The notes under the pieces are model-generated. The model did not search any database, was not told the DNA's origin, and saw nothing but the letters and a program-made list of their open reading frames with translations. The position numbers and the translations under genes are program-made. A DNA stretch of 64,000 nucleotides from Nitrososphaerota archaeon. Its GTDB lineage: Archaea; Thermoproteota; Nitrososphaeria; Nitrososphaerales; Gagatemarchaeaceae. Location: NCBI GenBank assembly GCA_029785195.1, contig JAFMAD010000002.1:53470-117469 (forward strand), written 5' to 3'. This document shows, piece by piece, positions 36,336 through 63,513 of the stretch. Every line of letters starts with the position of its first letter. The stretch's first letter is position 1.

Positions 36336-36475
36336 GTCTCCTAACTATCGCCCAACGTGTGGATGATATTCCCCGGCGGAGGCGCAATGAACCCTTATGC
36401 ATGGCATGAAAAGCCCCATTCAAAACCAAGAATGGCTGGAAGTTACGAATTGCTCGACTTCAGCTCGAACACTTC
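36336..36475 (+). repeat. Repeat copy A: 23S 3' end and pre-23S stem 3' arm
   Basis: The 3' strand of the pre-23S processing stem (36357-36406, pairing with 32243-32298), preceded by the last bases of the 23S and followed by GAAAAGCCCCATT and AATGGCTGGAAGTTACGA. It is the reference member of the dispersed family. Copy I shares its downstream half and copy J its 23S-derived left end. Downstream CCATTC/GAATGG can form a hairpin. Confidence 0.85.
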
Positions 36476-36609
36476 TGTGGCACGAATCACTATAATATGG
36501 ACGAACAACTCTACTATTCATTCAGCGACACTTGGGAAATGGACATCTATCGATTGAACCCCCTTCCTGAACATAACCTATAACAGCACCCAACTACTCA
36601 TCTTGCGTA

Positions 36610-36813
36610 TTGAGCCAGAAGCTTGTTTATCTTTTGCTAGAGGAACTGGGTGGAACTGCAACCAGTGATCAGATTGCAGCACTGGCTTTAAGTAAATATC
36701 CTGATAGAACGCTTCACAAATATGTCACGATCAGGCTGAATGCACTCAAGAATTGGGAGATTGTCAGGAGAAATCGAGACGGTTCATGGACGATTCTACG
36801 GAAGTTTGAATAA
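36610..36813 (+). CDS. Small winged-helix protein
   Basis: A 67-residue protein predicted to be a winged helix: LVYLLLEELGGTATSDQI, ALALSKYPDRTLHKYVTIRL, then a wing EIVRRNRDGSWTI. The start is TTG, 7 nt after TCTTGCGTA. It is the first gene of the island after the 23S and lies 207 nt upstream of the DNA methyltransferase, so it could be a control protein for the restriction-modification pair. That role is inference from position only. Confidence 0.5.
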   Translation: MSQKLVYLLLEELGGTATSDQIAALALSKYPDRTLHKYVTIRLNALKNWEIVRRNRDGSWTILRKFE

Positions 36814-36907
36814 GACAGTAAAGAACCGCGTTCAGCTTGCGCCACTTCACAACAGAATCTTGACCAGAGATATCATCGGACTCGGCTTGCTAGTTGGCCG
36901 TGGCGCA

Positions 36908-36915
36908 TTTATATC
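36908..36915 (+). promoter_or_regulatory. Putative TATA box for the methyltransferase gene
   Basis: TTTATATC in the 207-nt gap between the small winged-helix gene and the methyltransferase at 37021. It is the best TATA match in the gap, and the distance implies a leader of about 80 nt. No gene is supported in the gap itself. Confidence 0.35.
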
Positions 36916-37020
36916 TGGCAAGAATTGCAATATGCGGCAACTTGTTCCCACTGAGAATCGAAACGAATACTGGCACTTCGATTTTTCTCAAGGAACGACC
37001 GTCATGCGGAGTGCCCCCAT

Positions 37021-38421
37021 TTGACTATTGATAAGGAGACAAGTCTCCTTGATTTTCAGGATGATGGAAACAGTGACTCTTACTTGGCTCACGAAAAGAA
37101 TCTACAAATCACGCATATGAAGGAGGGTAAGATTGTTTCCGTTCCGGACATACCGCAATTCGACATCCCTGCAAACTCTACGCTCTTCATCGCGACTCGA
37201 GATGTATCGTACGCATCACACGGAATTCATGAGTTTCCAGCAAAGTACATACCACAAATTCCAAGGTGGGCGATTCTCAAGTATTGCGGCACAAAGCGAA
37301 CCAATTGGGTTCTTGACCCATTCTGTGGGAGCGGAACGACCTTGGTGGAGGCGCGACTACAGGGCGTCAACAGCTACGGTATAGACATCGATCCGATGGC
37401 GAGACTTCTTTCTTCGGTAAAATCTACGCCATTAGGTAGAGATGAGCTGAGAGAAACGAGGAACCAGATCTTCTCACTAATGCGGAGCAAAAATCTGAAT
37501 ACCATCCAAATCCCGGAAATTCCGAATAGGGACCATTGGTTCGCCGACGAAGTTGCGAAAGGGCTGACCGCCATCAAAGAATCTATCGATGATATCTGTT
37601 CCAATATTAGCCTTAGGAACTTCTATTATGTTTGTCTCTCAGCCATCATAAGACCTTCATCCTACGCAGATGATGATCAAATCTTCCCCGAAAAGACAAA
37701 ATGGGGGTTGAAGAAGAAAAAGAACCTCACGACCGACGGCGTATTGTCCAGATTTGAAAAGAGTGTTGACAAGTTCACTCCAAAGATTCTAGATTTCTCA
37801 TCTCGCTGTGACAAGCATGTATCTGCTAAGCTCATTGGCAAGGATGCGAGAAGCATTGAATTGCCTAACGACTCTGTCGAACTGGCTACCACTTCTCCTC
37901 CATACATCAATGCAATGGACTACTCTAGGGTGAATCAACTCGAAATGTATTGGCTTGGGCTTATCGACGGCCAGGGGAGAAGCGAGCTGAAGAAGGATTA
38001 CATCGGAACTGAGTCGGTATCATCTAAGACATATACACGTCTTCATCAACTGGATGGCCGAGCCGGAGCGAGACTAAACAAGTCGATTGAACAAATCTAT
38101 TCCAAAGACAAGCTAAGAGCCTACGTCACATACAAGTTCTTCGTAGACATGAGGAAGAATTTCGAGGAAGTGTTTAGAGTGTTGAGAGGAAGCTCCGACC
38201 GACGCGAAGGACGTTATGTGGTGGTGATTGGCGACGGGGTAGTACGAAGAATTCCGATTCCCACCCACGACGTTTTGTGCGACATTGCGAAAGACGTAGG
38301 ATTCGAGGTTGAGAACACATTTTCCTATGTCATAAGACATCGTACCCTTCTGATTACGCGCGCGGAACACAGCGGCATTATCGATAACGACTGGATTTTG
38401 ACTCTTAGGAAATCCGCATAG
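37021..38421 (+). CDS. Restriction-modification DNA methyltransferase (N6A/N4C)
   Basis: A 466-residue amino-methyltransferase. The SAM motif DPFCGSGTTLVEARLQG (residues 99-115) comes before the catalytic motif ATTSPPYINAMDYSR (about residue 290), with about 180 residues between them and a C-terminal YVVVIGDGVVRR segment. The order differs from the orphan beta-class enzyme at 21764. It converges with an AlwI-like endonuclease gene 8 nt beyond its stop, forming a type II pair. The region is visibly more A/T-rich than the core genes, which suggests transfer. Confidence 0.88.
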   Translation: MTIDKETSLLDFQDDGNSDSYLAHEKNLQITHMKEGKIVSVPDIPQFDIPANSTLFIATRDVSYASHGIHEFPAKYIPQIPRWAILKYCGTKRTNWVLDPFCGSGTTLVEARLQGVNSYGIDIDPMARLLSSVKSTPLGRDELRETRNQIFSLMRSKNLNTIQIPEIPNRDHWFADEVAKGLTAIKESIDDICSNISLRNFYYVCLSAIIRPSSYADDDQIFPEKTKWGLKKKKNLTTDGVLSRFEKSVDKFTPKILDFSSRCDKHVSAKLIGKDARSIELPNDSVELATTSPPYINAMDYSRVNQLEMYWLGLIDGQGRSELKKDYIGTESVSSKTYTRLHQLDGRAGARLNKSIEQIYSKDKLRAYVTYKFFVDMRKNFEEVFRVLRGSSDRREGRYVVVIGDGVVRRIPIPTHDVLCDIAKDVGFEVENTFSYVIRHRTLLITRAEHSGIIDNDWILTLRKSA

Positions 38422-38429
38422 CCCATGAG

Positions 38430-40229
38430 CTATCGAAGTCTCTTGCTCCACAGCTTGAGTCGCTTAACGAATGCCGAAAAGTCTCGGCTTGTACGATATT
38501 CGTCGAGCGCGTCCAAGAACTCCTTAATGGTCATCGGGCACACCACTCTCTGCTTGTCGTTCGCGAAATTCTGCAAAACATAACTATTGAGCCCCTTACT
38601 GTCAATAAATATGGCGAAAATATCCTGTAAGTTGAAACCAGAAGGCAACAGGCCACTCTTTATCATGTCGAGATGACTCGCACATGAGATGTCCTTTCCC
38701 TGCGCAAGTATCGGCCCCGCAAGTGTTACCTCCACCACAATTAGAGTTTTATCCTTCCTTATTGTCAAGTCGCTCTGATAACCTCCTACATGCATAGGAA
38801 TACCAAACGGGTCGATGGATCCCTCCCATGTAACTTCGTCGAAGTACCCCGGAACCATTGACTGAAGAAGGTCATACATCAATTGTTCAAATCTGCCGCC
38901 ACGAACATTCTTTTTGCTCTCAACTACTGTAGTGTATCTCTCCCTAAGTCTCAATCTTTCTAGTAGTTCGCTATCATACCCATTCGACTGCAAGAATTCA
39001 TTCAGTTTAGACTTGATTTCATCATAACCTATAGCTATGCCTCTGGAACTGCCGGCGTAGATCACAGTCAGAGTGTCTCGGTCTGGCAAGATCGATTCTT
39101 CCCAAGCAATTCTTTCAGGTCTCACGGAATAATCAATTGCCCGAACCTTAACTTCTTTAGCAGGCAACACAAGATGACCTCTCCCATTCGTTATTACCTG
39201 CCAAGTTCTCCTAGAATCCATTATCTGAAAAACGGCAACTGATACGTAATCTCCTTTCGGATTGATGACATCTGTCTTCACAAGACGATGTGGACCTATG
39301 AATCCTACAGAGCCAAAATAGTCATAATAGAGCAATACATCATCGTATTCGAAATATGAGGGACGAATGCTGGGTAAATCCTTCAAGCTTTCGCCTCTCA
39401 ATCTTAAGGTACCTTCTCCGCGCTCATACTCGAAAACTCCAGTTGTCTCGAACGCAGAGAAAACGTAGCTTGCAAAACCTTTGACGCTTGTTAACTTCTT
39501 GCCAACCTTAGCTCGTAATCTACTTCGTTCCAAGCTCCTTGTTGCCCGAAACTCTTTGATTCTGTCAGCGACTTGTGTTACTTGATCCATCCTTTTGGCT
39601 GTAGCGAGAAATAAGGCAAACTCATCACTGCTGATCATCTTATCTGGGAGTTCTCTGCAAACATCAATTGTGAACCATAATGGAAGGAGCTTGATTGCCT
39701 TGTGTGAATTGATACGCACCGAGGCATTCCAGTACATCCATTTCAGGAGCTGATTCCTGATTGAGCCAGCTAAATCTGATTCGGTTCTTGCATTCAAAAA
39801 TTCCTCGCCTGCCTCTGTAAACTGAATCCGGCCTTCGGCTTCATATAGAAAACCAAGATGCTCCGCAAGCGACTTGATGATTCTGGCGTTGGCACCAGCA
39901 GAACCTCCTACGCTAGATAGTTCAGTACGGATTCTTTCGATCGCAGCTACAAAACCTCTTGGGTTCCCTTTGGTTTTTTCCAACTCATCAAGGTATTTCG
40001 TGATATTGCGAGGAGTCTTAGAGAATTCAATCAGCTTACGCCTTCCAATCTCATTCGTGAACTCAGACTGGAGCTGCGGCCAGTTGTTTTTGAATCGTGG
40101 CTCATTGAGCACTCGCAAGATATCACGGAAGTTGGACAGGGTACTTGGAGAGATTGAACGCTGTTTAGTCAAGCTCCAGAATGCGTCATTTTCGTTGTAC
40201 TCTTTGGCAAACTTGGTCCAGTTAGCCAA
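38430..40229 (-). CDS. Type II restriction endonuclease, AlwI-like
   Basis: A 599-residue protein. The N-terminal two thirds are helical with winged-helix-like parts (residues 100-260), as in AlwI/FokI-type DNA-recognition modules. A PD-(D/E)XK-like cleavage domain is at residues 440-530: GGRFEQLMYDLLQSM, then GGYQSDLTIRKDKTLIVVEVTLAG, with Asp and Glu in place but E-V-T instead of E-x-K. Convergent pairing with the methyltransferase supports the role. The AlwI resemblance is by overall pattern; the recognition sequence is unknown. Confidence 0.72.
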   Translation of the reverse strand: MANWTKFAKEYNENDAFWSLTKQRSISPSTLSNFRDILRVLNEPRFKNNWPQLQSEFTNEIGRRKLIEFSKTPRNITKYLDELEKTKGNPRGFVAAIERIRTELSSVGGSAGANARIIKSLAEHLGFLYEAEGRIQFTEAGEEFLNARTESDLAGSIRNQLLKWMYWNASVRINSHKAIKLLPLWFTIDVCRELPDKMISSDEFALFLATAKRMDQVTQVADRIKEFRATRSLERSRLRAKVGKKLTSVKGFASYVFSAFETTGVFEYERGEGTLRLRGESLKDLPSIRPSYFEYDDVLLYYDYFGSVGFIGPHRLVKTDVINPKGDYVSVAVFQIMDSRRTWQVITNGRGHLVLPAKEVKVRAIDYSVRPERIAWEESILPDRDTLTVIYAGSSRGIAIGYDEIKSKLNEFLQSNGYDSELLERLRLRERYTTVVESKKNVRGGRFEQLMYDLLQSMVPGYFDEVTWEGSIDPFGIPMHVGGYQSDLTIRKDKTLIVVEVTLAGPILAQGKDISCASHLDMIKSGLLPSGFNLQDIFAIFIDSKGLNSYVLQNFANDKQRVVCPMTIKEFLDALDEYRTSRDFSAFVKRLKLWSKRLR

Positions 40230-40366
40230 GGAGCTGGAAGAACTTTGAGGTCATTCTTAAGTTTGTAATGACTAGTTAGCTGGCACTCTGCGAGTCACTG
40301 ATGCCTAACCGACCTTTTGCATCTATCGCTGAGTGAATTGATCGAGCTATTCAGCAAGGTCTAATC

Positions 40367-40693
40367 CTACCGCTCTACAACGATCTCTTCCATGTCAAGG
40401 GTATTCTGGCCTGAATATAGAATCTCCATCACAAGGACGAGAAAGATGTCTTCTATCCGCGGGTTAAGGCTGGTACCAGGGTCGAACCGCTTAGCCTGGA
40501 TGACGAAATCGAGGTCGATTCTAAGCCCTGGGACCTGCGTCTGCTCCCATTTCGCCCGAAGGTCTATGCCCCGTCTCCGGACTTGGCAAGGAGCTGTGTC
40601 TCAGAGAAACTCATCTCGTAGCCTATAGACCAGCTTCTCGAACTGAGCCGGCGAGAGGCTACCATGAATCTGCTGAAGACGCTCTCTTTCCAA
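40367..40693 (-). pseudogene. Small gene with one in-frame stop
   Basis: A 109-codon frame on the minus strand starting TTG at 40693. It is coherent except for one in-frame TGA at 40603-40601 (codon 31). Before the stop it reads RERLQQIHGSLSPAQFEKLV; after it, RRRGIDLRAKWEQTQVPGL, then LDFVIQAKRFDPGTSLNP and a hydrophobic-acidic tail ending MEEIVVER. No domain is recognised. Decay or a base error are equally possible. The flanking 40230-40366 and 40694-40814 hold nothing recognisable. Confidence 0.5.
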
Positions 40694-40814
40694 CTGATTC
40701 TATCTTGTCGCATCGATAGTTAACCTTTAGGAGCACCCGACGGTGAGATTTCTGGGCGGACCTCTCCGGAGATTGTGAGTAACCACCTGTCGCTACAGAC
40801 TTGCAATGAACCCA

Positions 40815-41372
40815 CTAAGACATTCGAGCTATTTGCTGGTAGGCTTGCTTTAGTGAAGAAAGAGCTCGTTGAACAGACCTAGCCTCTGCATCAGTATCTA
40901 GTTCTTGCACCTCTATTATGGAATCTAGGTAGAAAACGACGATGCCCTCTCCTCCATCGTACCTGATTTCTAGCTTCGTTTCATCTTTGTTTGCAACATT
41001 CCTGAGAATCTTCTCACTTTTGTCAAGTCGCCTTTTCACAATAGGATACGGTTTCAGGAATTTCTCTCTGAATTCAGGCTTACCGAAATCCAACAAGTTC
41101 ATCTTCAATATCGGGTAAACCGCCTGCTCTCCATAGGCGTCCTCAATCATATCGGAAATGTCGCCTATGGCCAGTGACTCCATCCTAATCTCGCCGTTGC
41201 TTCTCCAAACAGCATTGACGTAGGGAATCTCTCTGGCTTGGGTGATTTCTACACATCGAATTAGCCAAGTCGGATTCCCGAACCTCTTTGGAAGTTTCCC
41301 CTTTTCCTTCTTCACAAATTCCGAGTCAGTAAAGAGCGAAACTTCTCTTTTGATCGCTTCCATTTCATTCAA
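40815..41372 (-). CDS. Hypothetical protein, partner of a nuclease-like gene
   Basis: A 185-residue protein with no recognised domain. It is mixed alpha/beta with PTWLIRCVEITQAREIPYV and GGEGIVVFYLDSIIEVQEL segments and a C-terminal helix (SVQRALSSLKQAYQQIARMS). Its ATG is 10 nt after the stop of the PD-(D/E)XK-like gene upstream on the same strand, so the two form an operon. Located between a restriction system and the HerA operon, it may belong to a defence or mobile-element module, but no function can be assigned. Confidence 0.6.
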   Translation of the reverse strand: MNEMEAIKREVSLFTDSEFVKKEKGKLPKRFGNPTWLIRCVEITQAREIPYVNAVWRSNGEIRMESLAIGDISDMIEDAYGEQAVYPILKMNLLDFGKPEFREKFLKPYPIVKRRLDKSEKILRNVANKDETKLEIRYDGGEGIVVFYLDSIIEVQELDTDAEARSVQRALSSLKQAYQQIARMS

Positions 41373-41382
41373 CTAGTCTTGC

Positions 41383-42675
41383 TCACCACACCTTAGAAAC
41401 TGTCAGGGCGCACTCTACTTCCCACGGATTCCAGTCTAGAATCGCCATATAAGCACCGGCAACAGTCTCACTACCGAACTTATCTTCCTCCAAGAAAGAT
41501 TTGACCTGCTTGGTAGCATCACATGCAGCAGCTTTCACTTTCTTCCACCACTTAGACTCGAAGTAAGCTAGCAAGTTATCCGGAGTTCGTCTCAAGCTAT
41601 CCGGCCTTCCATGCCCCAACAGACCTCCACAGCGACCCAGCGGATAGCGCATCAACTCTGGACAATCGAGACGCGTCAATATTTCGTTTATGAGCTCTTC
41701 CCCAAGGTCGCCCCTCCTCTTCTTGTAGCCGAGCGGAGACCCCTGGAAGAGTCTGGCGCCCACGTAGGTCCTCAGTGCTGAGCTCAATCGAATCTCATAC
41801 CTCCCTTCGAACGAGGTTGGCCTGTTCACAAACTCGATCCCATTCCTAAAGTCGGCCATTCGCACGACATTCCCATCCGTACCTGCACTCCAGGCATCCA
41901 ACACGGTGGTGTGCATGCTCTCGCGAGGCCTTCTGTGCATGAGCAGGATGTGCTTGCCATCGGACGCGGCTACGTACACCAACGAGTGGTCCCTCATCCT
42001 CACCGAGAACCCGCTTAGGTCCTTTCTGACCTTGACTGGCCCGGCGTCCCCAAAGCCGACATTCAGCGTCACCCCGCCCTCGAAGTGTTCCATCCCGAGC
42101 ATCTCCAACCTCAGCCTCGCCTCATCCACCCTGACCCAGAGCCCGTCCCTCGACTCCAGCTCGGTGTTCTCCAGCCCCTTCGGCTTCATCCTGTTGTAAT
42201 CGGCCACGAACTCCTCTTGGGGGTACCTCTCTATCGACCTCACCCAGAACTCCTCCCCATGACTCGCCTTCAGCTGCGCCAAAGACAACACCGCCTTCCT
42301 GCTGTCCACCTTGTGCCTCGTGTAGAGGGTCACCCCATCGAAAGGCGCCTTGCACCTCTTGATGCCGACGGCGAATATCTCGTCCCGAGCATGGCGAGGT
42401 ATGGCAACGTTCGGCAAGTTCAATCCGAGACCGGAGTTGTGCTTCACGGCGAGCAGGCAAGTCAGGTACCGCATCTCGGTGGGCACACTTCCAATCCTCG
42501 GAAATGGTCGATTGCCTCCAGTCAGCCTAGTACGGGAACCAGTACCATCGACGCCGTCCAAAGAAACTCCCAGTAGGGGCGGGGGTCCGGCGACGGGTCC
42601 TGGACATCCTCCATTGGACGAGATACCTATTCCCGGCTTCGATACCTCGTTGCGAGACAGTCTGTTGTCTTGCAA
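41383..42675 (-). CDS. Protein with C-terminal PD-(D/E)XK nuclease-like domain
   Basis: A 430-residue frame; an internal ATG at 42474 would remove 67 Gly/Pro-rich residues that look less like structured protein. The last 110 residues have a nuclease pattern: RRGDLGEELINEILTRL (Glu), then GHGRPDSLRRTPDNLLAYFE followed by SKWWKKV, giving Asp...Glu-Ser-Lys. The central part is beta-rich (VYVAASDGKHILLMHRRPRE). No homolog with known function is recognised. With the 185-residue gene downstream it forms a two-gene unit of possible defence function. Confidence 0.6.
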   Translation of the reverse strand: MQDNRLSRNEVSKPGIGISSNGGCPGPVAGPPPLLGVSLDGVDGTGSRTRLTGGNRPFPRIGSVPTEMRYLTCLLAVKHNSGLGLNLPNVAIPRHARDEIFAVGIKRCKAPFDGVTLYTRHKVDSRKAVLSLAQLKASHGEEFWVRSIERYPQEEFVADYNRMKPKGLENTELESRDGLWVRVDEARLRLEMLGMEHFEGGVTLNVGFGDAGPVKVRKDLSGFSVRMRDHSLVYVAASDGKHILLMHRRPRESMHTTVLDAWSAGTDGNVVRMADFRNGIEFVNRPTSFEGRYEIRLSSALRTYVGARLFQGSPLGYKKRRGDLGEELINEILTRLDCPELMRYPLGRCGGLLGHGRPDSLRRTPDNLLAYFESKWWKKVKAAACDATKQVKSFLEEDKFGSETVAGAYMAILDWNPWEVECALTVSKVW

Positions 42676-43131
42676 AGGACATCACGCAGAAGTTCGGTCA
42701 GCTCGCAGCATCAGGTGTCGGATTCGTAGGTGGTAGCAGGGGTGGAGCAGGTAAGTAGCAGGTTAGCGCGAAGATGGTGAAGGGTCAAAAATTGGGTGGG
42801 GTGGGCGGAAAAGTGAGGGGAGCAGGAAGATGAGTAGGGGCGAGAAAAAGTCAGTTTTGAACGGGCGGAAATGTGAGCGTAAATCTCTCGGCGCTGACGC
42901 TATTTAGAAGCGAGCAGGTCGATCTGCCGGTAGACGCGCGTCAAATCCACACTTGACACGGGACCGTCTCATCGCGTCGAGAATTCCCTAGACATCAGGA
43001 GCGCGACGTCTAATCCTCAGTTGACGGGGCGAAATTGCAAATCTTTCAAGTGTCGCCGAGCATGATGGCTTCTTTGAGGTCGGCGGAGCACCTGTCGAGC
43101 CCTCCCTAACATACTCGTTATGAGGACTAGT
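42676..43131. other. Gene-poor stretch before the HTH-HerA operon
   Basis: About 455 bp with no supportable gene. The first 180 bp are purine-rich on the plus strand (runs of GGTGG, GGGGTGG, GAAAAAG). The rest is unremarkable until the palindrome at 43132. A 261-residue minus-strand frame starting at 43773 covers part of it but is the shadow of the plus-strand operon. Confidence 0.4.
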
Positions 43132-43153
43132 ACCTAAGATACGTATCTTAGGT
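43132..43153. promoter_or_regulatory. Perfect 22-bp palindrome (putative operator)
   Basis: ACCTAAGATAC and GTATCTTAGGT form a perfect inverted repeat with no spacer, centred at 43142/43143, 48 bp upstream of the HTH gene that opens the HerA operon. Its position and symmetry suit a dimeric regulator, possibly the 157-residue HTH protein itself acting on its own promoter. An alternative is a recombinase or nicking site of a mobile element. Confidence 0.6.
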
Positions 43154-43200
43154 GAGGAACCGTCTTTAAGACGGGACGCACCGCCAGCCAGGTTGACCTC

Positions 43201-43674
43201 TTGCGGAGGTACCCGGAGATGAGGCAGCTGACGGAGACGGTCACCCAGGACATCGCTCTCATCAGACACTTCAGAGAGCACCTCGCGATGCTCTCCGACC
43301 AGAGGGTGCTGGACCTTCTCAGCCTCGCCAGCGTCACCCAGGTCACCAACAAGGATGTCAGGGCCGTCTTCAAGGTGGGGAGGGCCGGAGCGTGGGTCTG
43401 GCTCTCGAGGCTCACCAGGCTCGGTATGCTCGAGAAGCGCGGCCAGAGCTACAGGGCGTCCCCCTACTCGGAGAAGCTCATCAGCACGACTTCGCTGACC
43501 TTTCAGAGCGTCCTCACCGGCAGGACGCCCAGGCCGCAGGGACAGAACTGGACGGAGGCGCTCCGCCTCGCCTCGGAGGGCGTCAGGATGTCCTACGAGC
43601 GGGGGAAGATCGACCAGGCCGAATACGCTGCGAAGGGCAGGATGCTGAAGGAGCTGGAGGAGTCGCTCCAGTGA
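43201..43674 (+). CDS. Winged-helix protein preceding a HerA-like ATPase
   Basis: A 157-residue protein. Residues 35-90 look like a winged helix (DQRVLDLLSLASVTQVTNKD, FKVGRAGAWVWLSRLTRLGM, LEKRGQSYRASPYSEKL). The C-terminal 50 residues are helical (ASEGVRMSYERGKIDQAEYA, AKGRMLKELEESL). The start is TTG. Its stop and the ATPase start overlap as TGATG, so the two are translationally coupled. It is more G/C-rich than the restriction genes before it. It could regulate the operon or load the ATPase on DNA. Confidence 0.65.
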   Translation: MRRYPEMRQLTETVTQDIALIRHFREHLAMLSDQRVLDLLSLASVTQVTNKDVRAVFKVGRAGAWVWLSRLTRLGMLEKRGQSYRASPYSEKLISTTSLTFQSVLTGRTPRPQGQNWTEALRLASEGVRMSYERGKIDQAEYAAKGRMLKELEESLQ

Positions 43675-44882: not shown

Positions 44883-44904
44883 AGGCTGGTCAAATCTCGA
44901 AATC

Positions 44905-45119
44905 CTATCCATCGTCCCACTTCTTCCGACCTGTTCCATGAAACGCCTTGTGGCACGTCTTACAAAGAACTTCGAGGTTGGACGGACCATGACTCGTCCC
45001 TACGCAAGCGGAATGTTGTGGTTGATTGTCAGGTTGTCCCTGCTGTTGCACTTGACGCATCGGACATCGGCTGCCTTTAGGATGGCCCTGAAGGTCTGTC
45101 TCTTGCCTCTTAGCCGCGT
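44905..45119 (-). pseudogene. HNH endonuclease remnant, frameshifted
   Basis: Two minus-strand frames together give an HNH nuclease. Frame 1 (45119-45000) reads RTFRAILKAADVRCVKCNSR and DNLTINHNIPLA then TAG; frame 2 continues GTSHGPSNLEVLCKTCHKAF to the stop at 44905. One base added near 45000 joins them into the C-x2-C...NH...N-x-x-x-L-C-x2-C-H pattern. No in-frame start is seen because a TGA lies 9 bases upstream of 45119. It may be a decayed homing or mobile-element nuclease. Confidence 0.6.
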
Positions 45120-45181
45120 TCGTCCTCATACATCAGCCCGTTATTTCGTTGATGGTCGTCCGATCATAGTCTAACATCAAG

Positions 45182-45262
45182 TTCCCCGGCGGAGGCGCAA
45201 TGAACTCTTATGCATGGCTCAACGCTTTCTACGGAAGTGCAAAACTAGGAAGTGCTTAGGGA
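45182..45262 (+). repeat. Repeat copy B
   Basis: TTCCCCGGCGGAGGCGCAAT, then GAACTCTTATGCATGGC as in copy A, then a short hairpin CGCTT-TCTACGG-AAGTG (45223-45239). It lies 60 bp after the HNH remnant and 143 bp before the solute-binding protein gene. The left part of the stem strand is missing. Confidence 0.8.
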
Positions 45263-45404
45263 GATTGGATTTACTCTAATCTTCGTGCAAGTCGTGTGAG
45301 GACTGAGATGGACGACATCAACCTCGGGTGTCTCAGACGATTGACATTTTCATGGTCTCGCGTCGAGAAAATTAAAATATGCCAAAATCCTAATTGCAGG
45401 AAAG

Positions 45405-53838: not shown

Positions 53839-53878
53839 AGCTTTCCTCGAGCTGTAACCAACCTAACTAGCTGGGAAG

Positions 53879-55465: not shown

Positions 55466-55578
55466 CTCCGTAATCTGAGGAGGAATTACTTATTAAGTAT
55501 TAGGTGCGCCAAGGAATTCCACTCCTTTCGCGGGCTGGAACAAAGGGTTAAAGTCGGCGACCTGTCATCCTCGCGACC

Positions 55579-56574: not shown

Positions 56575-57415
56575 ACGCGCCGAGACAGCCAGATGATGGC
56601 ATCGTAGCGCTACAATCGGTTACCGCTCATCCTTATTGAGTGTGCTTGACTCTCATTCTCATCTTCATTCTCTTCGTACCGGTCGTCCACTCGTCGGGTG
56701 GAGGCTTCTAGTTCGCGCGGCCCAACTGGTAATTACATGATTTTTTTTACCGAATTTCATTTCGACGTAGTTTAGCACGGAGTTCTACGTGCCATGTCAC
56801 ATACTGTATCGTTAACATCCGCCCAGCGTCGGCATGGATGGAGAAGGGCCGTATCCACAGAGGTTTGAGCAGAGGATGACGCGATCAGGCTCCTCCTCGG
56901 CGACAAGCTGTTGAAGAGCGAGGTAACCTTGTCGCTTAAAGTGGGCTACACATCGGTGAAGAAACTAGTGGAGGTTACGTCGACTCAGGGATAAGATGGG
57001 AACCTAGACGCAAACAAGCACACCGGAGGTCTCCGCTGATGAGCAGGAGCCAGAGGAGACGGCTCGCTAGGCTTCTGTCGAAAGAGTGCAGAGCACTACG
57101 ACTTGGACAGCGGAGAGGATCGCCTGGCTCTTCAAGGAGAAGTTCGGGACGACTATCATGACATTGAAGCTCAAGAGCAACTATCCTTCTTGTTGACTTG
57201 CGAAAGATCTACAGCATGACCGCCAGAGAGGTGTACTTGTGAGCTTCGTCTATCGCAGCGGCATCATCCTTGGTCAGAATCGAGTCAAACGCTTTCTCAA
57301 GAGAGGTGATTCTTCGTCCAATCTGATGAATCTCCTGCCTTCGTTCGGCGTTCTCCGCTTTCATGCAGAAGAGACAAAATCGTCACTCGCCTTTAACGTA
57401 TCGTTCGATGTGTAC
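56575..57415. other. Decayed, gene-free stretch
   Basis: About 840 bp without an intact gene. Short plus-strand fragments look coding (LLLGDKLLKSEVTLSLKVGY near 56885-56950; ERIAWLFKEKFGTTIMTLKL near 57112-57175) but are separated by stops in all frames. They suggest one or more rotted genes of unknown family. A T-run (ATTTTTTTTAC) at 56738-56750 could be a terminator-like signal after the G1PDH-like gene. Confidence 0.45.
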
Positions 57416-57518
57416 CTACTATCGCCCAAATCGTTGATATTCCCCGGCGGAGGCGCAATGAACCCTAGCATGGCAGCCGCACTTTTTACAGGAGTGTAAG
57501 AACAAGAAATGGCTAGAG
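57416..57518 (+). repeat. Repeat copy F
   Basis: CTACTATCGCCCAAATCGTT, then TGATATTCCCC onward identical to copy C for 64 bp including the GCACT/AGTGT hairpin, then AAATGGCTAGAGG. Its left end (ACTATCGCCC) matches the end of the 23S as in copies A and J. It separates the decayed stretch from the D-amino-acid gene group. Confidence 0.88.
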
Positions 57519-57653
57519 GTCACGTTACCCTGGAGCGGGGCCCCCACAAAATCCCTATACCTGTGCCTTTCAACTTCACTAACTTTCGGCCAGTCGACCG
57601 ATCATGCATAGACGAAGGCGATGCCCGCTATATCAGATTATTTCGCGAGAACC

Positions 57654-58550
57654 TCAGACTACGGCTATAGGTGTTATCGGGGATCCGCTCGCACCCTTCA
57701 CCTGCAGCGGCAGGCAGACGAGCAAGAACGTCCACGACTTCTCGCGAGCCGGCTCTTCGAGGTAGAGATTCTCTATCATCCTTATGCCGTTCTTCACCAG
57801 CATCATCTGGTGGACGGCGTCCTCCTCTTTGGGGTCCTCATTAGGGTCGACCTCAGGGTTCCACGCGTCGGCCCCAAAGATTGCTATCCTCTTCCGGATG
57901 AGCAGGCTGGCCGCCTCCTTCCCTATCCCCGGGCATGAGCCGAGGTACTTGTTGTTGTCATTCATCCAGTGCCGGGACCAACCGGTGCGTACCAGTACGG
58001 CGTCCCCTTTTCGCAGGGTGACCCTCTGTCTCCTGATGCATAGGTCGATGTCGGACGGTTTGATGACATAGCCCGCCTCCAGTGAGGGTTTCCTTTTCGC
58101 GCGGGCGACGTCGAGCAGGACGCCGCGGGTGAAGATCGGCGGGCTCGTCTCCATCCCCAGCTTCGTCGTACCCAGCGGGCCGGTGACCTCCGCGGCGGAG
58201 ATACCATTGTAGAGTAGCCCGTCGATGGCCGTGTGGTTCAGGGAGTCGATGTGGGTCCCCGAATGGTCTGCCATATTGACCTTCACGTTCATCGCGCTGA
58301 ACTTGTTCTTCTTCGTGAACATTTTCTGCGTGTCACTGTGGCGTCTGTACGTCGAGTACTGGAACTCGCCGTGGAACCAGTGCTGCGGGATGCCACTCTC
58401 GAGGATGTGGGACAACACGAAGATTTTTCCTTTCCTCACGAGTCTTGCAGCACTAGTGATTATCTCCGGCGTGACCTCGTTCATCGCTCCGGCTTGGTCA
58501 TCCGCGCCCCAACGGGAGGGGAACCAGTCGCTTTTCGCTATCATCATCAT
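57654..58550 (-). CDS. Cyclase-family (kynurenine formamidase-like) hydrolase
   Basis: A 298-residue metal-dependent hydrolase of the cyclase/formamidase family. The metal motif is NMADHSGTHIDSLNH (H-x-G-T-H-x-D), preceded by SRWGADDQAGAMNEVTPE and followed by KGDAVLVRTGWSRHW and the acidic IFGADAWNPEVDPNED. Members hydrolyse amide or lactone substrates; a formamidase is possible. It ends 10 nt upstream of, and is cotranscribed with, the TIM-barrel gene at 58561. Confidence 0.85.
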   Translation of the reverse strand: MMMIAKSDWFPSRWGADDQAGAMNEVTPEIITSAARLVRKGKIFVLSHILESGIPQHWFHGEFQYSTYRRHSDTQKMFTKKNKFSAMNVKVNMADHSGTHIDSLNHTAIDGLLYNGISAAEVTGPLGTTKLGMETSPPIFTRGVLLDVARAKRKPSLEAGYVIKPSDIDLCIRRQRVTLRKGDAVLVRTGWSRHWMNDNNKYLGSCPGIGKEAASLLIRKRIAIFGADAWNPEVDPNEDPKEEDAVHQMMLVKNGIRMIENLYLEEPAREKSWTFLLVCLPLQVKGASGSPITPIAVV

Positions 58551-58560
58551 AACACCCGGC

Positions 58561-59487
58561 TCAAACCGGGACGGCCAGCCCCTTAGCCCCTCTCTTCGAA
58601 GTCTTGGCCGAGGGATAGTCTCTCAGAAGATGCTCGTATGATATCCTTGCCTGCCTCACCTCCTCGTCAGCGTAGCCAAGCATCGTACTGAGGATGTGCC
58701 TCCCTGCCGGATAGATGTTCTGCCCGAGTGGGATACTGAACTTCAGGTAGATGGGCGAGGCAACCCTCACCATCTCGGGGACATCGTAGTGTCTCACAAA
58801 GCCCCCGTATCCAGTTGGCACCGCTATGTAGACGTCCAAAGGTATTCTGATTGCACTCCTGATTGAGGCAAGCTGGGAGAGAGACAGGTCCGTTACGACG
58901 TTGAGTGTCCCGGCTCCCAAGCGCTCGAGCAGCCGCGCTGACGCGGGGTTCCCGTGCCCCGTGGTCACGGATATCTTCCAGACAACATCCTTCGGTACCA
59001 TCCCCTCCTTCTTCATCTCCTCGAGGACCCACAGCAGGCCCTCGTCTGCCACCAGGAAGCTCCTGATACCCAGGCGGATACCGCGCTCGATGTCCTTTAT
59101 CGCGACCCTGAGCTGATCAGCGCCCCTTAGTCTCCAAGAGACGGCCGCCGCGTTGGCGGACCTAGCTGTCCCGCCGATATCGTAGCTCGCGCGTGGACCA
59201 GTGAACAGGCTAACCTCAATTCTCTCCGCCCGCCCAATCTCGACCATCTGTTCAACCTCCCTGTCGGTCAGCATCAACACGCCGCTCCCCTGCGAGATCC
59301 TGTGAAGCGGTATTTCGTACTCCTCGGCCCTCTCGACCACCCTGCGAAACTGCTCCGGACTCTCGACGCTGGGTATCTCAATTCTGTACCGGGCACCGTC
59401 GGGAAACCTCTTGGTAGAAGTAGGGAGGTCGGCGAGGTCGCACGACGGTAGACCGATCTTCTTCAGCAGGTCCTCGGTCTTCAACAT
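58561..59487 (-). CDS. TIM-barrel protein, possibly U32-peptidase-like
   Basis: A 308-residue protein from the ATG at 59487; an upstream in-frame ATG at 59541 would enter the 65-bp intergenic space shared with the divergent gene. Alternating strands and helices (RYRIEIPSVESPEQFRRVVE, RIEVSLFTGPRASYD, FLVADEGLLWVLEEM, GAGTLNVVTDLSLSQLASIR, PLDVYIAVPTGYGGFVRHYD) indicate a TIM barrel. It recalls U32-type peptidase-like proteins, but the collagenase signature is not evident. Context with a D-threonine-aldolase-like gene suggests amino acid metabolism. Confidence 0.55.
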   Translation of the reverse strand: MLKTEDLLKKIGLPSCDLADLPTSTKRFPDGARYRIEIPSVESPEQFRRVVERAEEYEIPLHRISQGSGVLMLTDREVEQMVEIGRAERIEVSLFTGPRASYDIGGTARSANAAAVSWRLRGADQLRVAIKDIERGIRLGIRSFLVADEGLLWVLEEMKKEGMVPKDVVWKISVTTGHGNPASARLLERLGAGTLNVVTDLSLSQLASIRSAIRIPLDVYIAVPTGYGGFVRHYDVPEMVRVASPIYLKFSIPLGQNIYPAGRHILSTMLGYADEEVRQARISYEHLLRDYPSAKTSKRGAKGLAVPV

Positions 59488-59552
59488 GCGTTGCTGGGGT
59501 GCACGGTCACATATTGGTATTTTGGGGGCCCCCGAGTTCAACGATAAATATT

Positions 59553-60689
59553 ATGGACACTCTCCGCCAAGGTCGTCTGCCATTGTTCACTACGAGCGTC
59601 CCGGTCGACGAGTACGAGACTCCTGTCCTGCTGCTGGATGTCGAGGCGGCCGACAGGAACATTGAGAGGATGGGCAACTTCTTCAGGGGCAAGAAGGCTG
59701 CGCTCAGGCCTCACGTCAAGGTCCACAAGTCCCCATGGCTCGCTAAGAAGCAGATTGCCGCTGGGGCGAGGGGAATCACATGCGCCAAGTTGAGCGAGGC
59801 TGAAGTGATGGTAGATGGCGGCATAGACGACATCCTCATCGCGAACGAGATAGTCGGAGAGGACAAGGTCAGGAAACTCGTGAAGCTTGCCAAACGGAGC
59901 AAGCTCACGGTCATAATCGACGACCTCGACAACGCCAGGCAGATCTCGTCACTTGCGGCCCTCGAAGGCTCAAGGGTCAGAATCCTAGCCGACGTCAACC
60001 TGAGCGCCGCCGCCGGAGGCATCCTTGACAGGACCGGACTTGTGCCCGGCAGGGACCTCATAGTACTGGCTCAGGAGGCGGCCAAGCTACCGAACCTGGA
60101 CTTCGTGGGTGTCATGGGGTATGAGGGGTCCCTGAAAGCGATTGACAACGCCAAGGTTAAGCTCGAACACGGGAAGAAGGCCCTTGATCTGCTTGTCGAG
60201 ACCGCACGGTCGATATCGGCAGCGGGACTGAACGTGGAGGTCGTCAGCTGCGGAGGTACCATGTCTTACAAGGTCGCTTCGGAGTTCCCCGGTGTGACCG
60301 AGGTGCAGGCGGGAGGCTACGTCTTCATGGACCTAGGCTACCGCAAATCCGGGATCGATTTTGAGACGTCCCTGACGCTCCTGACGAGGGTCGTCAGCGT
60401 CCCACGGCCGGAAAAGATAATCGTCGATGCCGGGTTTAAGGCGATAAGCGCTGAATCCGGGCTGCCTCAGGTCAAGGACAGACCCTACATTGAGGTCATC
60501 TCGCTCAATGCGGAACACGGCCACGCCACTGTGGGGGATGTCTCACAGACACCGAAGCGCGCCGACAGGCTGGAGTTCCTGCCTTCTCACGCAGACACCA
60601 CTACCTGCCTCCACGAATACTACCAAATCACGAGAGGCGACCGTATCGTCGACAAGGTGAAAATAGCCGCAAGGGGAATGCTCCAGTAG
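59553..60689 (+). CDS. PLP-dependent D-threonine aldolase/D-serine dehydratase-like enzyme
   Basis: A 378-residue fold-type III PLP enzyme. The PLP lysine lies in ALRPHVKVHKSPWLAKKQ; VVSCGGTMSYKVASEFPGVT is the phosphate-binding region; the C-terminal domain has LNAEHGHATVGDV and LPSHADTTTCLHEYY, whose His/Cys may bind a divalent metal as in DSD1-type enzymes. It acts on D-3-hydroxy amino acids or similar. The ATG at 59553 follows a TATA-like CGATAAATATT closely, so the transcript may be nearly leaderless. It diverges from the TIM-barrel gene. Confidence 0.85.
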   Translation: MDTLRQGRLPLFTTSVPVDEYETPVLLLDVEAADRNIERMGNFFRGKKAALRPHVKVHKSPWLAKKQIAAGARGITCAKLSEAEVMVDGGIDDILIANEIVGEDKVRKLVKLAKRSKLTVIIDDLDNARQISSLAALEGSRVRILADVNLSAAAGGILDRTGLVPGRDLIVLAQEAAKLPNLDFVGVMGYEGSLKAIDNAKVKLEHGKKALDLLVETARSISAAGLNVEVVSCGGTMSYKVASEFPGVTEVQAGGYVFMDLGYRKSGIDFETSLTLLTRVVSVPRPEKIIVDAGFKAISAESGLPQVKDRPYIEVISLNAEHGHATVGDVSQTPKRADRLEFLPSHADTTTCLHEYYQITRGDRIVDKVKIAARGMLQ

Positions 60690-60718
60690 TGCTCTGAAAC
60701 GCTTACAGTGAATGAGCC

Positions 60719-60763
60719 GTACGTCGAGCGGGGGCCAAGCAGGCCGGGACGGGGTTCGCATGG
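60719..60763 (+). pseudogene. Remnant of a HerA-like ATPase gene end
   Basis: About 45 bp (GTACGTCGAGCGGGGGCC and CAGGCCGGGACGGGGTTCGC) nearly identical to 44790-44835 inside the HerA-like ATPase gene, where it encodes YVERGARQAGTGFAY. One base is missing in a G run, so it is out of frame. It lies 76 bp upstream of repeat G, as the full ATPase gene lies upstream of repeat B. Confidence 0.75.
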
Positions 60764-60838
60764 GTTCATAGGGTGGGAACGTTCCATCCCGAAAGTGAGC
60801 TGAACAGCGGCTAGACGGAGTCATGGACGATACCTCTA

Positions 60839-60918
60839 GGCGGAGGCGCAATGAACCCTAGCATGGCACAACACTTTCTACGGAAGTGTAAGCAGAGAAA
60901 TGGCTAGAGATTGCGTTT
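60839..60918 (+). repeat. Repeat copy G
   Basis: GGCGGAGGCGCAATGAACCC then TAGCATGGC, a perfect hairpin ACACTT (60871-60876)/AAGTGT (60884-60889) with a 7-nt loop, then GAAATGGCTAGAGATTGCGT as in copy C. It continues beyond 60918 with CTCGGACAAAACTATTAAT, closely matching the region after copy C, so the promoter-like segment is part of the duplication. Confidence 0.87.
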
Positions 60919-61002
60919 AGCATTCTCGGACAAAACTATTAATCGAATCAGGCTGTATTCTTCTTCAGGTGCGGTATCACGAAACCTCAGAGTCGCGAAA
61001 GC

Positions 61003-61754
61003 GGCGCGCTGCTCCCCATCACGATTGTCCTCATCTCAATTCTGATCATAGCGGCGGAGGCTGGTTCTTCATACCTCACTGAATCCGGGAGGATCTGACG
61101 TCGACCTCTGTATCGACCTCGACCCAGACGGGGGGCCTTGAGCTCAGCGTAGTGACAAACAGCTCGGACCTTCATGCGGGACACTCACTCCATATCACTG
61201 TCTCGCTCAACAATACTACCCCGGCGCCCCTGAACCTCACCATCGCCGACGACTGGCAGGTCCCAGGTTTCCCCATCTCGATAGTAAGCTCATGCTTCAC
61301 CAATGAACCGCTGGAATTCATGATAGTACTGGGAAACTACAACCTGAACGGGCTGCAGGCTGCCAGTACCAACTCTTCGGGTGACTTCCCCGTCTTTTGT
61401 ATGGAGGGCGGCCACGCCAACTACACTACATTTGAACCGAATAGTGACATGGCGAACTTCACGGGATTCTTCTGCACGACCAATTGCCGCCCGCTCACAC
61501 TCGCCTACAGGTTGCTGACGAACTTCACGGTCAGGGGCTACTGGGGCTATCCCCTAAACGGCTCCGAAGATAACAAAATTCTCTCAGAGCCAAACCCGCC
61601 ATGCTACGTCAACGGGGTGCGCGACTGCAGCACGTTCGCCTATCCCGAAGTTGGCCCGGCAGCCCAGCACGGGTTCATCGACGGGGCCTATACGCTAGTG
61701 GTGGAGGACGAGTGGGGGGACGTTGTCCTGTTACACCTCAGCGTGAACGGATGA
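61003..61754 (+). pseudogene. Secreted protein paralog, frameshifted
   Basis: Codons from 61003 read ITKPQSRESGALLPITIVLI then SILIIAAEAG, a membrane anchor, and close at TGA 61096-61098. The main domain is in another frame from about 61083 to the stop at 61754: a Thr/Ser linker, LSVVTNSSDLHAGHSLHITV, a Cys-containing beta-rich body with Asn-x-Ser/Thr sites, and the ending GAYTLVVEDEWGDVVLLHLS. Layout and ending match the protein at 52066-52821. No clear start codon precedes the anchor. It may be a pseudogene or an assembly error. Confidence 0.6.
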
Positions 61755-61790
61755 GACGGGCTGTCTTCGAGAATATCTGCTGATTATACG

Positions 61791-61812
61791 GCGCAATGAA
61801 CCCTAGCATGAC
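61791..61812 (+). repeat. Repeat copy H (short)
   Basis: GCGCAATGAACCCTAGCATG, a 20-bp exact match to the core of copies C, F and G, then diverging. It lies between the secreted paralog and the DinB/YfiT-like gene; a TATA-like GATATTTATC follows at 61838-61847. Confidence 0.75.
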
Positions 61813-61875
61813 CGGACCTTCTTCTCTCACCCCTTCATGATATTTATCTCCCTCTTGTGAATCCATTCACATACT

Positions 61876-62382
61876 TTGGCTGACATCAAGGCGCTAAACG
61901 CTTACTCCTCGGGGGTCAGGAGGCGCTTCTTTACCAAGATCTCGTCACTCGGCTGGGAAGAAGCCATCAGGAACAGGGAGGCCAGTCACTACAGCCTCCT
62001 TGGCATCATGCTTCACATGATTGACAATGAGGACTGGATCGTCAATGTGGTGATTCCGGGGAGACCCGCGACCGAGAGAAGAAAGCATCTCCCCAACGAC
62101 TTCACCGGGTTCGAGGGCGTGGAGTCGCTGCTGGCTGACGTCGAGACTAGGACTAATTTGTATCTCGAACACATGGATACCAGGGAACTCGCCCGGACCG
62201 TTAAGTTCACCATTTCATCAGGTACCAGCTTCGATATGACAGTCGAGGAATGTCTCTTTCAGAGTTTCACCGAGCAGCTCTATCACATGGGAGAGGTCAT
62301 CGCCCTCCTCTGGCAGCAGGACATAGAACCTCCTCAGATGCAATGGTTCCGCAACAGAGAGAATCTCAGGTTGAGCGCATAG
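61876..62382 (+). CDS. DinB/YfiT-family protein
   Basis: A 168-residue four-helix-bundle protein of the DinB/YfiT superfamily. The metal-binding His appear in LLGIMLHMIDNEDWIVN and FQSFTEQLYHMGEVIALLW, with a third ligand possibly in the C-terminal part. Members are thiol-dependent S-transferases or metal-dependent hydrolases and are unrelated to DNA polymerase IV. The start is TTG, about 30 nt after the TATA-like GATATTTATC. It is a single-gene unit between repeats H and I. Confidence 0.75.
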   Translation: MADIKALNAYSSGVRRRFFTKISSLGWEEAIRNREASHYSLLGIMLHMIDNEDWIVNVVIPGRPATERRKHLPNDFTGFEGVESLLADVETRTNLYLEHMDTRELARTVKFTISSGTSFDMTVEECLFQSFTEQLYHMGEVIALLWQQDIEPPQMQWFRNRENLRLSA

Positions 62383-62402
62383 CTCCATCTACACAAGGAG
62401 CG

Positions 62403-62487
62403 GATGGTATTCCCCGGCGGAGGCGCAATGAATTCTATGCGTGGCATGAAAAGCCCCATCCAAATCGAAAATGGCTCGAGGTTACGA
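62403..62487 (+). repeat. Repeat copy I
   Basis: GATGGTATTCCCCGGCGGAG continues as the family core, then GGCATGAAAAGCCCCATCCA and AAATGGCTCGAGGTTACGAC, matching copy A beyond the stem arm. A and I form a subfamily distinct from B/C/E/F/G. It lies between the DinB/YfiT-like and TatC-like genes. Confidence 0.87.
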
Positions 62488-62567
62488 CTGACTGAGAACG
62501 AGGGCGGAACTTACGTTCACAAAAAGATATTAGTCATCAGCCGCTCTCATCTTGCTCAAGTATAGCT

Positions 62568-63452
62568 TTGGCAAGCAAGAAACTGGCGGATGCAGAGCTC
62601 ATCCTCATCCCTCGGCAGGCACTCCGTCTCAAGGTTCTCGCACCCGGGCTGCTCGTCATATTGCTCGCTGTGTTAGCAATCCCATCGAGGATAATCGCAG
62701 CATCCAGCTTCGGCGGTTATAATTCGCTAGTCGCCCTCTTTCTTCACGACCTCAGACAAGGGATACTTCCATCGAATGCTATATTCCTGGCGCAGTCTAA
62801 TAGCGACTTTCAAGTGTACGTCACCGCATCCCTGTTTCTCGCTCTACTATTCGGCTCCCCTCTGATTGCATTCTCAGTCTTCGAGCGCATGCTGCCGGAG
62901 GAGACCACCCACCGAACCTTCAAGGTGGCGGCACTGACTGCGCTGTCGTCGGTCTCGCTCGCTATCGGAGTGCTCTTCGGATACTATTTCACTGCCTCGG
63001 ACTTGACGGCGTTGTTGACTGTCGGCTCCCCAGGGCCGATACACGTTTCTATCGCATGGTACAACGGTGTCTTGGAGATAATGACATTGGCAGGCCTTTT
63101 GCTTGCAACATCAGTTTGCGCTCCCGCTTTATTGTACTTCCGCAAACGGGCTCGACCAATACAACGACTGCACGGTTTCCCCGGAAGGCTTTCGGGTCTC
63201 GCTGTGGCAGTGATTGGGGTCTTTCTGATCGCAGCGGGACTTGACCTTTATTCGTACACAGCGCCGACTGCAATCCACGACATGAGATGCTATTACGGGA
63301 ACTGCATACCATTCGATCTTAGCTGGAACGCATTCGAATTGTTACCCTATGCAGGACTTCTCTTCATCAGCCTTGGAGTCTTTATCATAGCAAGCATCAT
63401 GGTCACTCGAAGGAGGGGGGCACCAATGCCTCGCTTGGCCGATGTCTCCTAA
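62568..63452 (+). CDS. TatC-like multi-pass membrane protein
   Basis: A 294-residue protein with about six hydrophobic segments. Residues 80-190 follow the TatC pattern: VYVTASLFLALLFGSPLIAF-SVFERMLPEE, ALTALSSVSLAIGVLFGYYF, then ...IMTLAGLLLATSVCAPALLY-F, corresponding to TatC helices 2 to 4. TatC is the core of the twin-arginine translocase. Conserved N-terminal TatC residues are not obvious, so this may be a divergent paralog. Its start is TTG. Its last codon and TAA stop are formed by the 23S-like left end of repeat J. No tatA is adjacent. Confidence 0.6.
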   Translation: MASKKLADAELILIPRQALRLKVLAPGLLVILLAVLAIPSRIIAASSFGGYNSLVALFLHDLRQGILPSNAIFLAQSNSDFQVYVTASLFLALLFGSPLIAFSVFERMLPEETTHRTFKVAALTALSSVSLAIGVLFGYYFTASDLTALLTVGSPGPIHVSIAWYNGVLEIMTLAGLLLATSVCAPALLYFRKRARPIQRLHGFPGRLSGLAVAVIGVFLIAAGLDLYSYTAPTAIHDMRCYYGNCIPFDLSWNAFELLPYAGLLFISLGVFIIASIMVTRRRGAPMPRLADVS

Positions 63453-63513
63453 CTATCGCCCAACGTGTGGATGATATTCCCAGGCGGAGGCGCAATGAAC
63501 CCTATACATGGCT
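63444..63513 (+). repeat. Repeat copy J with 23S 3' terminal sequence
   Basis: From GTCTCCTAACTATCGCCC onward, 59 of 60 positions are identical to copy A at 36336-36395, including the last about 20 nt of the 23S gene. CATACATGG-like sequence follows, then unrelated DNA. This is the right-most copy and the one retaining most of the 23S end, so it is the best candidate for the far boundary of the island. It supplies the stop codon of the TatC-like gene. Confidence 0.87.

What the first reader, a model, noticed from the sequence alone, without database searches (positions are those of the whole stretch)
36336..63513. Ten dispersed copies of the pre-23S rRNA processing-stem strand partition a 27-kb island
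A repeat with core GGCGGAGGCGCAATGAA occurs at about 36.34, 45.18, 51.90, 52.83, 53.34, 57.42, 60.84, 61.79, 62.40 and 63.44 kb, always in the same orientation, and nowhere in 1-36 kb. The first copy is the 3' strand of the pre-23S processing stem: 36357-36406 pairs block by block with 32243-32298. The other copies lie between unrelated cargo units (R-M, HerA operon, HicAB, transport and metabolic sets, membrane proteins). The pattern resembles a cassette array or accretion island whose attachment-like site is the rRNA 3' flank. Elements using tRNA 3' ends are well known; I know of no described system using this site. The mechanism is inference.
Basis: partly seen in the sequence, partly recalled or inferred. 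Interest (0 to 1): 0.93.

Follow-up and report, generated by a model that had tools for sequence, protein, structure and literature searches.

The report
Gene-cassette array on 23S rRNA stem
In a family of soil archaea, unrelated genes stand in line behind the large ribosomal RNA gene, separated by same-facing copies of a 24-letter piece of that gene's own processing stem, which likely serves as the docking site where new genes are inserted.

Summary
Eight core copies (7 exact, 1 with one mismatch; 0.17 expected) and two shorter ones lie at 36.4-63.5 kb, all on the + strand. The first is the 3' strand of the pre-23S processing stem. The island runs off the contig end, so 27 kb is a minimum. 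The host belongs to the family of Ca. Gagatemarchaeum (Thaumarchaeota Group I.1c). The repeat occurs in 41 of 46 family genomes searched (373 copies against 16 for the reversed pattern; 23 genomes have 5 or more) but in only 4 of 283 other genomes of the class. In 34 stretches with two or more copies, all copies of a stretch face one way. Units have a median of 1.05 kb; 78 of 158 hold one ORF. Several units recur in other species, one in two genera. One duplicated unit end changes neighbour at the core. Three relatives keep the same chromosomal gene 2.3, 10.8 and 17.7 kb after 23S, with mostly different cargo between. This is an integron-like cassette array on a site I found described nowhere in six literature searches. 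It fails the integron tests made. The recombinase is not identified; tyrosine integrases beside repeats in one genus are the best lead.

The parts
32243..32298 (+). 5' strand of the pre-23S processing stem, partner of repeat 1; holds TAGGGTTCGCGCAAGCATCCGCCGGG at 32252
   Evidence: Co-fold; string found at 32252
32288..36367 (+). 23S rRNA gene
   Evidence: RF02540 match, 2404.7 bits
36372..36395 (+). Repeat 1, the 23S-side core (3' strand of the stem, across the bulge-helix-bulge)
   Evidence: Exact; 24-nt core defined
36396..45184 (.). Unit 1: DNA methyltransferase, AlwI-like restriction enzyme, HerA-type ATPase and companions (R-M and putative defence)
45185..45208 (+). Repeat 2
45209..51916 (.). 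Unit 2: SBP_bac_5, luciferase-like (F420) oxidoreductase, M20 peptidase, amidohydrolase, SMP-30-like protein
51917..51940 (+). Repeat 3, with a 5' flank like the 23S end
51941..52818 (.). Unit 3: one ORF of 251 aa, no Pfam match
52819..52842 (+). Repeat 4, short copy (GCGCAATGAACCCT), overlapping the stop of the ORF before it
52843..53332 (.). Unit 4: HicA toxin and HicB-like antitoxin
53333..53356 (+). Repeat 5
   Evidence: one mismatch
53357..57442 (.). Unit 5: amino-acid permease, Fe-ADH/glycerol-1-phosphate-dehydrogenase-like protein, small ORFs
57443..57466 (+). Repeat 6, with a 5' flank like the 23S end
57467..60835 (.). Unit 6: cyclase, 326-aa protein, D-serine-dehydratase/alanine-racemase-like protein
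60836..60859 (+). Repeat 7
60860..61780 (.). Unit 7: one ORF of 200 aa; related ORFs in arrays of G031, G003, G015
61781..61804 (+). Repeat 8, short copy (GGCGCAATGAACCCTA)
61805..62412 (.). Unit 8: one DinB-like ORF; related ORFs in arrays of G002, G007
62413..62436 (+). Repeat 9
62437..63479 (.). Unit 9: one TatC-like membrane protein
63480..63503 (+). Repeat 10; 60 nt 98% identical to 36336-36395 including the last nucleotides of 23S
   Evidence: (family D1)
63504..64000 (.). Start of unit 10 (Fic-like ORF); contig ends here

Best explanation
The region is a gene-cassette array whose separating repeats are copies of the 3' strand of the pre-23S rRNA processing stem, and it was likely built by site-specific recombination that inserts mobile gene units at that 24-bp core behind the 23S gene. 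Shown: the core and its place in the stem, the shared orientation, the unit sizes, the recurrence of units in other genomes, and different cargo between the same chromosomal ends. Inferred: a unit enters, perhaps as a circle, by recombination between its core and the core beside 23S or in the array, so that 23S keeps a working 3' end and a further core copy is left on the far side of the unit. Inferred and weaker: the enzyme is a tyrosine recombinase supplied in trans by integrated elements, since I found no recombinase among the annotated genes of the island and none of four recombinase families tested is general among array-bearing genomes. Why this site: an rRNA stem that must be kept offers a stable target at the end of an essential gene, as tRNA 3' ends do (inference).
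For:: 8 core copies against 0.17; 373 copies in 46 family genomes against 16 for the reversed pattern, 23 genomes with at least 5; 41 stretches scanned, 39 with copies, 34 with two or more; none of the 34 mixes strands; in 181 array copies conservation is confined to about 24 nt; that 24-mer is exact in 13 of 16 23S-side copies (two of the other three border an assembly gap, one has C to T), and the 5' stem strand is exact in 10 of 12 loci; G001 (no repeat) and 15 outgroup 23S flanks have other stems; 158 units, median 1046 bp, 78 with one ORF; 47 of 197 copies fall inside ORFs where coverage predicts 168; units shared between genomes with ends at repeats, one of them in genera g1 and g4. (and 30): two unit ends of G033 are 92.6% alike over 272 nt up to and through the core, then have different neighbours; the same gene 2.3, 10.8 and 17.7 kb after 23S in G038, G040, G031; in genus g4, 4 of 18 tyrosine integrases have a same-strand repeat within 3 kb downstream, 0.4 expected.
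Against: No recombinase family is general: PF00589 in 27 of 46 genomes and absent from array-bearing G013, G014, G015 and G040; PF00239 in 6 of 18, IS110 in 6 of 18, Cas1 in 5 of 18. The integrase-repeat link is post hoc and seen only in g4. 40 of 181 array copies have a 5' flank like a 23S end, and in 8 of 13 that could be tested it is most like the 23S of the same genome, which a crossover inside the core does not explain by itself. Copies and arrays occur away from 23S, and contig C6 of G002 and one copy on C51 of G003 break the one-strand rule. No excised form was seen. G038 and G040 share one related unit, and the two G033 contigs could come from two strains.
Confidence: 0.66

Rival explanations
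1. Ordinary accretion: integrative elements, each with its own tyrosine integrase using the 23S 3' end as attB, inserted one after another and decayed to their cargo.
For: Long 5' flanks are copies of the own 23S end in 8 of 13 testable cases, as displaced gene ends would be; integrases lie next to repeats in g4; tandem integrations of elements at one site are known in Thaumarchaeota (PMC6563490, passages).
Against: 78 of 158 units hold one ORF and the median is 1.05 kb, too small for former elements unless all decayed to the same form; many copies have only the core; no integrase in the window's units by Pfam; a unit end changes neighbour at the core.
Confidence: 0.18
2. Duplication of the target at each insertion, as by a Cas1-type (casposase or CRISPR-adaptation-like) integrase, with 23S in the place of the leader.
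For: Repeats copy the own genome's 23S end; casposons in tandem are known in Thaumarchaeota.
Against: Cas1 found in 5 of 18 genomes and in none of array-rich G010, G007, G009, G015 or the window's genome; copies have very unequal 5' extents, not one duplicated length; terminal inverted repeats were not looked for.
Confidence: 0.06
3. Passive duplication: fragments of the 23S 3' end spread by illegitimate or homologous recombination, without a dedicated site.
For: Some copies carry up to about 100 nt of the 23S end.
Against: Conservation is confined to 24 nt, orientation is uniform in 34 of 34 stretches, copies avoid ORFs, and the stem is frozen in the array lineage.
Confidence: 0.05
4. The copies are RNA signals (processing or 3'-end elements) that were multiplied for gene expression, not recombination sites.
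For: The core spans the bulge-helix-bulge of the pre-23S stem.
Against: ORFs stand on either strand relative to the repeat (73 and 54 in units under 1.6 kb); repeats bound units that differ between genomes; the partner strand is not repeated in the array by eye.
Confidence: 0.05

Closest known systems
Integrons and CALINs, including archaeal ones (PMC9668308, passages read)
   Same: Arrays of mostly one-gene units between short direct sites; arrays often lack a nearby recombinase gene
   Different: No attC boxes (4 of 181 windows with the box pair, 1 of 181 shuffled); no IntI (integrases far below the NCBIfam cut-off); ORFs on both strands; the head site is the 23S rRNA stem
Integrative elements and islands at tRNA 3' ends in archaea (PMC8371274, PMC6563490; passages)
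   Same: Target at the 3' end of a structural RNA gene, gene kept, displaced end copies, tandem accretion
   Different: Target is the pre-23S processing stem; units are about 1 kb and carry no integrase in the window; neither paper's main text contains the term 23S
Casposons / CRISPR adaptation
   Same: Directional growth of an array with repeated target copies (recalled)
   Different: Cas1 in only 5 of 18 genomes; gene-sized units; unequal repeat extents
pdif modules (Xer/dif modules on plasmids; recalled, from no call)
   Same: One or two genes between short sites served by a recombinase encoded elsewhere
   Different: Site and orientation pattern differ as I recall; no dif model was run

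Membership tests
Integron | attC sites with RYYYAAC ... GTTRRRY | tested here: not met
   pair in 4 of 181 windows of 190 nt, 1 of 181 after shuffling; GTTRRRY 27 against 20; RYYYAAC 58 against 27 (it occurs in the 23S-like flank)
Integron | IntI integrase | tested here: not met
   no integrase among 30 window ORFs scanned; five array-side integrases of relatives score at most 42.1 bits for TIGR02249 (cut-off 265)
Integron | Tandem units between same-facing sites, about one gene each | tested here: met
Integron | Cassette ORFs nearly all in one orientation | tested here: not met
   73 against 54 in units under 1.6 kb
Integrative element at an RNA-gene 3' end | Direct repeat of the gene's 3' end at the far side | tested here: met
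   repeat 10; 40 of 181 copies; 8 of 13 testable closest to own 23S
Integrative element at an RNA-gene 3' end | Element carries its own integrase | tested here: not met
   for the window; in relatives some integrases lie beside repeats
Casposon / Cas1 array | Cas1 integrase present | tested here: not met
   5 of 18 genomes, 0 in the window's genome (78% complete)
Casposon / Cas1 array | Terminal inverted repeats | not tested
   No call
pdif module | XerC/XerD binding arms around a short centre | not tested
   No dif model was run

The most novel reading that the evidence does not exclude
A second, independently evolved kind of gene-cassette platform: Gagatemarchaeaceae use the bulge-helix-bulge of the pre-23S rRNA stem as a permanent docking site, with 24-bp copies of it as the recombination sites of small, often one-gene cassettes, so that an rRNA operon doubles as the head of a cassette array rich in defence and metabolic genes. 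The constraint runs both ways: the recombination system has frozen the sequence of an rRNA processing stem across genera.
Probability: 0.45. Interest if true: 0.92.

Novelty: new variant of a known kind. Interest (0 to 1): 0.84.

Why it matters
Integrons are the best-known platform that collects single genes as cassettes. A comparable platform in an uncultured soil archaeal lineage, tied to the 23S rRNA gene, would show how such archaea gather defence and metabolic genes, would name a new class of attachment site (an rRNA processing stem), and would give a concrete target for finding its recombinase. It also suggests that an rRNA spacer can be frozen by mobile DNA and not only by RNA processing.

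Tried and rejected
Recombinase hunt: PF00589 over 46 genomes; PF00239, IS110 (PF01548) and Cas1 (PF01867) over 18 chosen genomes each. None is general, so no enzyme is named. The most recurrent array module (HerA-type ATPase in 6 genomes, a second large protein and a ~200-aa protein in 5 each) was considered as array machinery. I read it as defence cargo: PADLOC HerA models match and in G031 a type IIG restriction enzyme lies beside it. That role is untested. The second protein had no Pfam match; by eye its end looks like a PD-(D/E)XK nuclease.

Integron membership was tested and rejected. T-arm-like letters near some copies suggested tRNAs: ARAGORN found none in 28 of 29 loci and one tRNA-Gln in L088, about 3.9 kb from the repeat. 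Rfam gave no match in 36300-64000 at E up to 1. IMG/VR has no exact 19-mer. The 23S flank of G208 (another family), searched in 15 outgroup genomes, gave one strong match, its own; the next best had E 0.0014. Other outgroups were not probed with their own flanks.

In one search I gave G000 a genus label of its own, so the same-genus tally there (28 of 40) is not used; its cut for a long flank is arbitrary. ORFs come from a greedy longest-ORF caller, which inflates ORF coverage. The listing was cut in the middle, so shared units are those shown. The match list was cut after part of G010; its per-genome counts were not.

Literature: six searches; term passages seen in PMC10640624, PMC7603488, PMC9668308, PMC6563490, PMC8371274 and PMC3293823, no whole text. 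The library lacks most subscription papers and all bioRxiv preprints.

Full report
Observation. 23S ends at 36367. The stretch after it pairs with the stretch before 23S; the two co-fold at -72.1 kcal/mol against -41.7 on average for 200 shuffled pairs. Read by eye, GCGC/GCGC flanked by AAG and AAT is the four-pair helix and the two three-base bulges of a bulge-helix-bulge, which the archaeal splicing endonuclease would be expected to cut (general knowledge, not tested). The contig ends at the window end, so the array is open.

Who and where. The family search covers 46 genomes. G010's contig C108 (23486 bases) and G003's C107 (18201) match in length the contigs of Ca. Gagatemarchaeum stordalenia and of Thaumarchaeota MAG palsa_1368 in the named scan. 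I therefore place the window in the family of Ca. Gagatemarchaeum, Group I.1c; this is inference from contig lengths. In the named scan, 52 of 59 stretches with the exact 19-mer are from records titled Thaumarchaeota, Nitrososphaerota, Nitrososphaerales, archaeon or Gagatemarchaeum, and 7 are titled as bacteria. In a class-wide sample at up to 2 mismatches, 12 of 17 family genomes and 4 of 283 others match; the four have 5 hits, the reversed control 2 hits in those 283. Two of the five lie on one contig of G074, which could be transfer or mis-binning.

Arrays. At up to 3 mismatches 41 of 46 family genomes match, 373 copies against 16 for the reversed pattern; 23 genomes have five or more, and genomes with one or two hits prove nothing. 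In 40 fetched loci, chosen because they held hits or 23S, plus the window, the scan at up to 4 mismatches finds 197 copies against 2 control hits; 39 of the 41 stretches have copies, 34 have two or more, and none of these mixes strands. Outside them, contig C6 of G002 and one copy on C51 of G003 break the rule, as does one 4-mismatch hit in the integrase locus L107. Conservation in 181 array copies is confined to about 24 nt; in 16 23S-side copies the same 24 nt are constant or nearly so while both flanks vary; 13 of 16 are exact, two of the rest border an assembly gap, and G041, whose only hit is its 23S copy, has one change. The 5' stem strand is exact in 10 of 12 loci, window included. The two exceptions are G001, which has no repeat, and a hit in G022 that looks bacterial to me. 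Of 15 outgroup 23S flanks none has the full core; the closest, G208, shares GAGGCGCAATGA, most keep only a GCGCAA-like centre, some not even that. So the stem is frozen in the lineage that has the arrays, as expected of a DNA site; shared descent also contributes.

Units. 158 intervals between copies have a median of 1046 bp; 78 hold one ORF and 39 two; 47 of 197 copies fall inside ORFs where coverage predicts 168. Window cargo: restriction-modification, HerA, HicAB, transport, metabolism, DinB-like, TatC-like, Fic-like.

Mobility. Units recur between genomes with homology bounded by the repeats: one in G003, G010 and G039 (two genera), others in G003 and G004, G036 and G039, G003 and G010, G010 and G007 (two units), G039 and G016, and one in G004 and G010 in opposite orientation. 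In G033 two copies of a unit end, 92.6% alike over 272 nt, agree up to and through the core and then have different neighbours. In G038, G040 and G031 the same acyl-CoA-dehydrogenase-like gene begins about 2.3, 10.8 and 17.7 kb after the 23S-side core, with mostly different content between; G038 and G040 do share one related unit. In G038 and G040 a decayed core seems to remain just before that gene (by eye).

Unexplained. Forty of 181 array copies have a 5' flank like a 23S end; of the 13 with an own reference, 8 match their own genome best among 14, three of the 8 in the window. A foreign unit with a crossover in the core would bring its own flank. Crossover further upstream, later gene conversion, or origin of the units in the same lineage could each explain it.

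Enzyme. Two groups of tyrosine integrases in genus g4 lie upstream of repeats: 4 of 18 have a same-strand repeat within 3 kb downstream, where 0.4 are expected by a simple count (P about 0.0008, post hoc). Sixteen of the 18 were fetched; the other two lie on contig C86 of G003, away from its listed repeats. No such neighbour was seen in genus g1, and several array genomes have no PF00589 match at all. I rate a tyrosine recombinase in trans as most likely, at about 0.45, within the broader claim of site-specific recombination at 0.66.

Novelty. It works like an integron and is not a member by three tested features. Term searches in the review of archaeal tyrosine recombinases and in the survey of thaumarchaeal mobile elements found no '23S' in the main texts; the two papers on this lineage contain neither 'integrase' nor 'integron'. 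I saw passages only.

Noticed in passing
window 31047-31775 (+): A LAGLIDADG homing-endonuclease ORF lies inside the 16S rRNA gene (2298 nt against a 1478-position model); the 23S match is also about 1.1 kb longer than its model, so both genes seem to hold introns.
   Followed up: partly
window 51941-52010, 57467-57530, 60860-60930: The 3' sides of several copies share about 60 further nt with a small hairpin and, in two, an AAACTATTAAT box that looks like a promoter; similar sequence follows some copies in G010.
   Followed up: partly
L066 7966-13110, window 40815-44882, and arrays of G004, G039, G025, G040: A recurrent module of a HerA-type ATPase, a second large protein and a ~200-aa protein sits in arrays of five to six genomes; possible unnamed defence system.
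   Followed up: partly
L095, L099, L094, L096: Next to array-side integrases a related sequence follows a repeat; in L094 and L096 it codes, on the other strand, for a similar ~158-aa protein that looks like a ribbon-helix-helix protein; possible attachment region of an integrative element.
   Followed up: no
L199 (G074 C89) 665 and 10956: Two repeats of this family's type on a contig binned to another family (f18), whose other members tested have a different 23S flank; transfer or mis-binning.
   Followed up: partly
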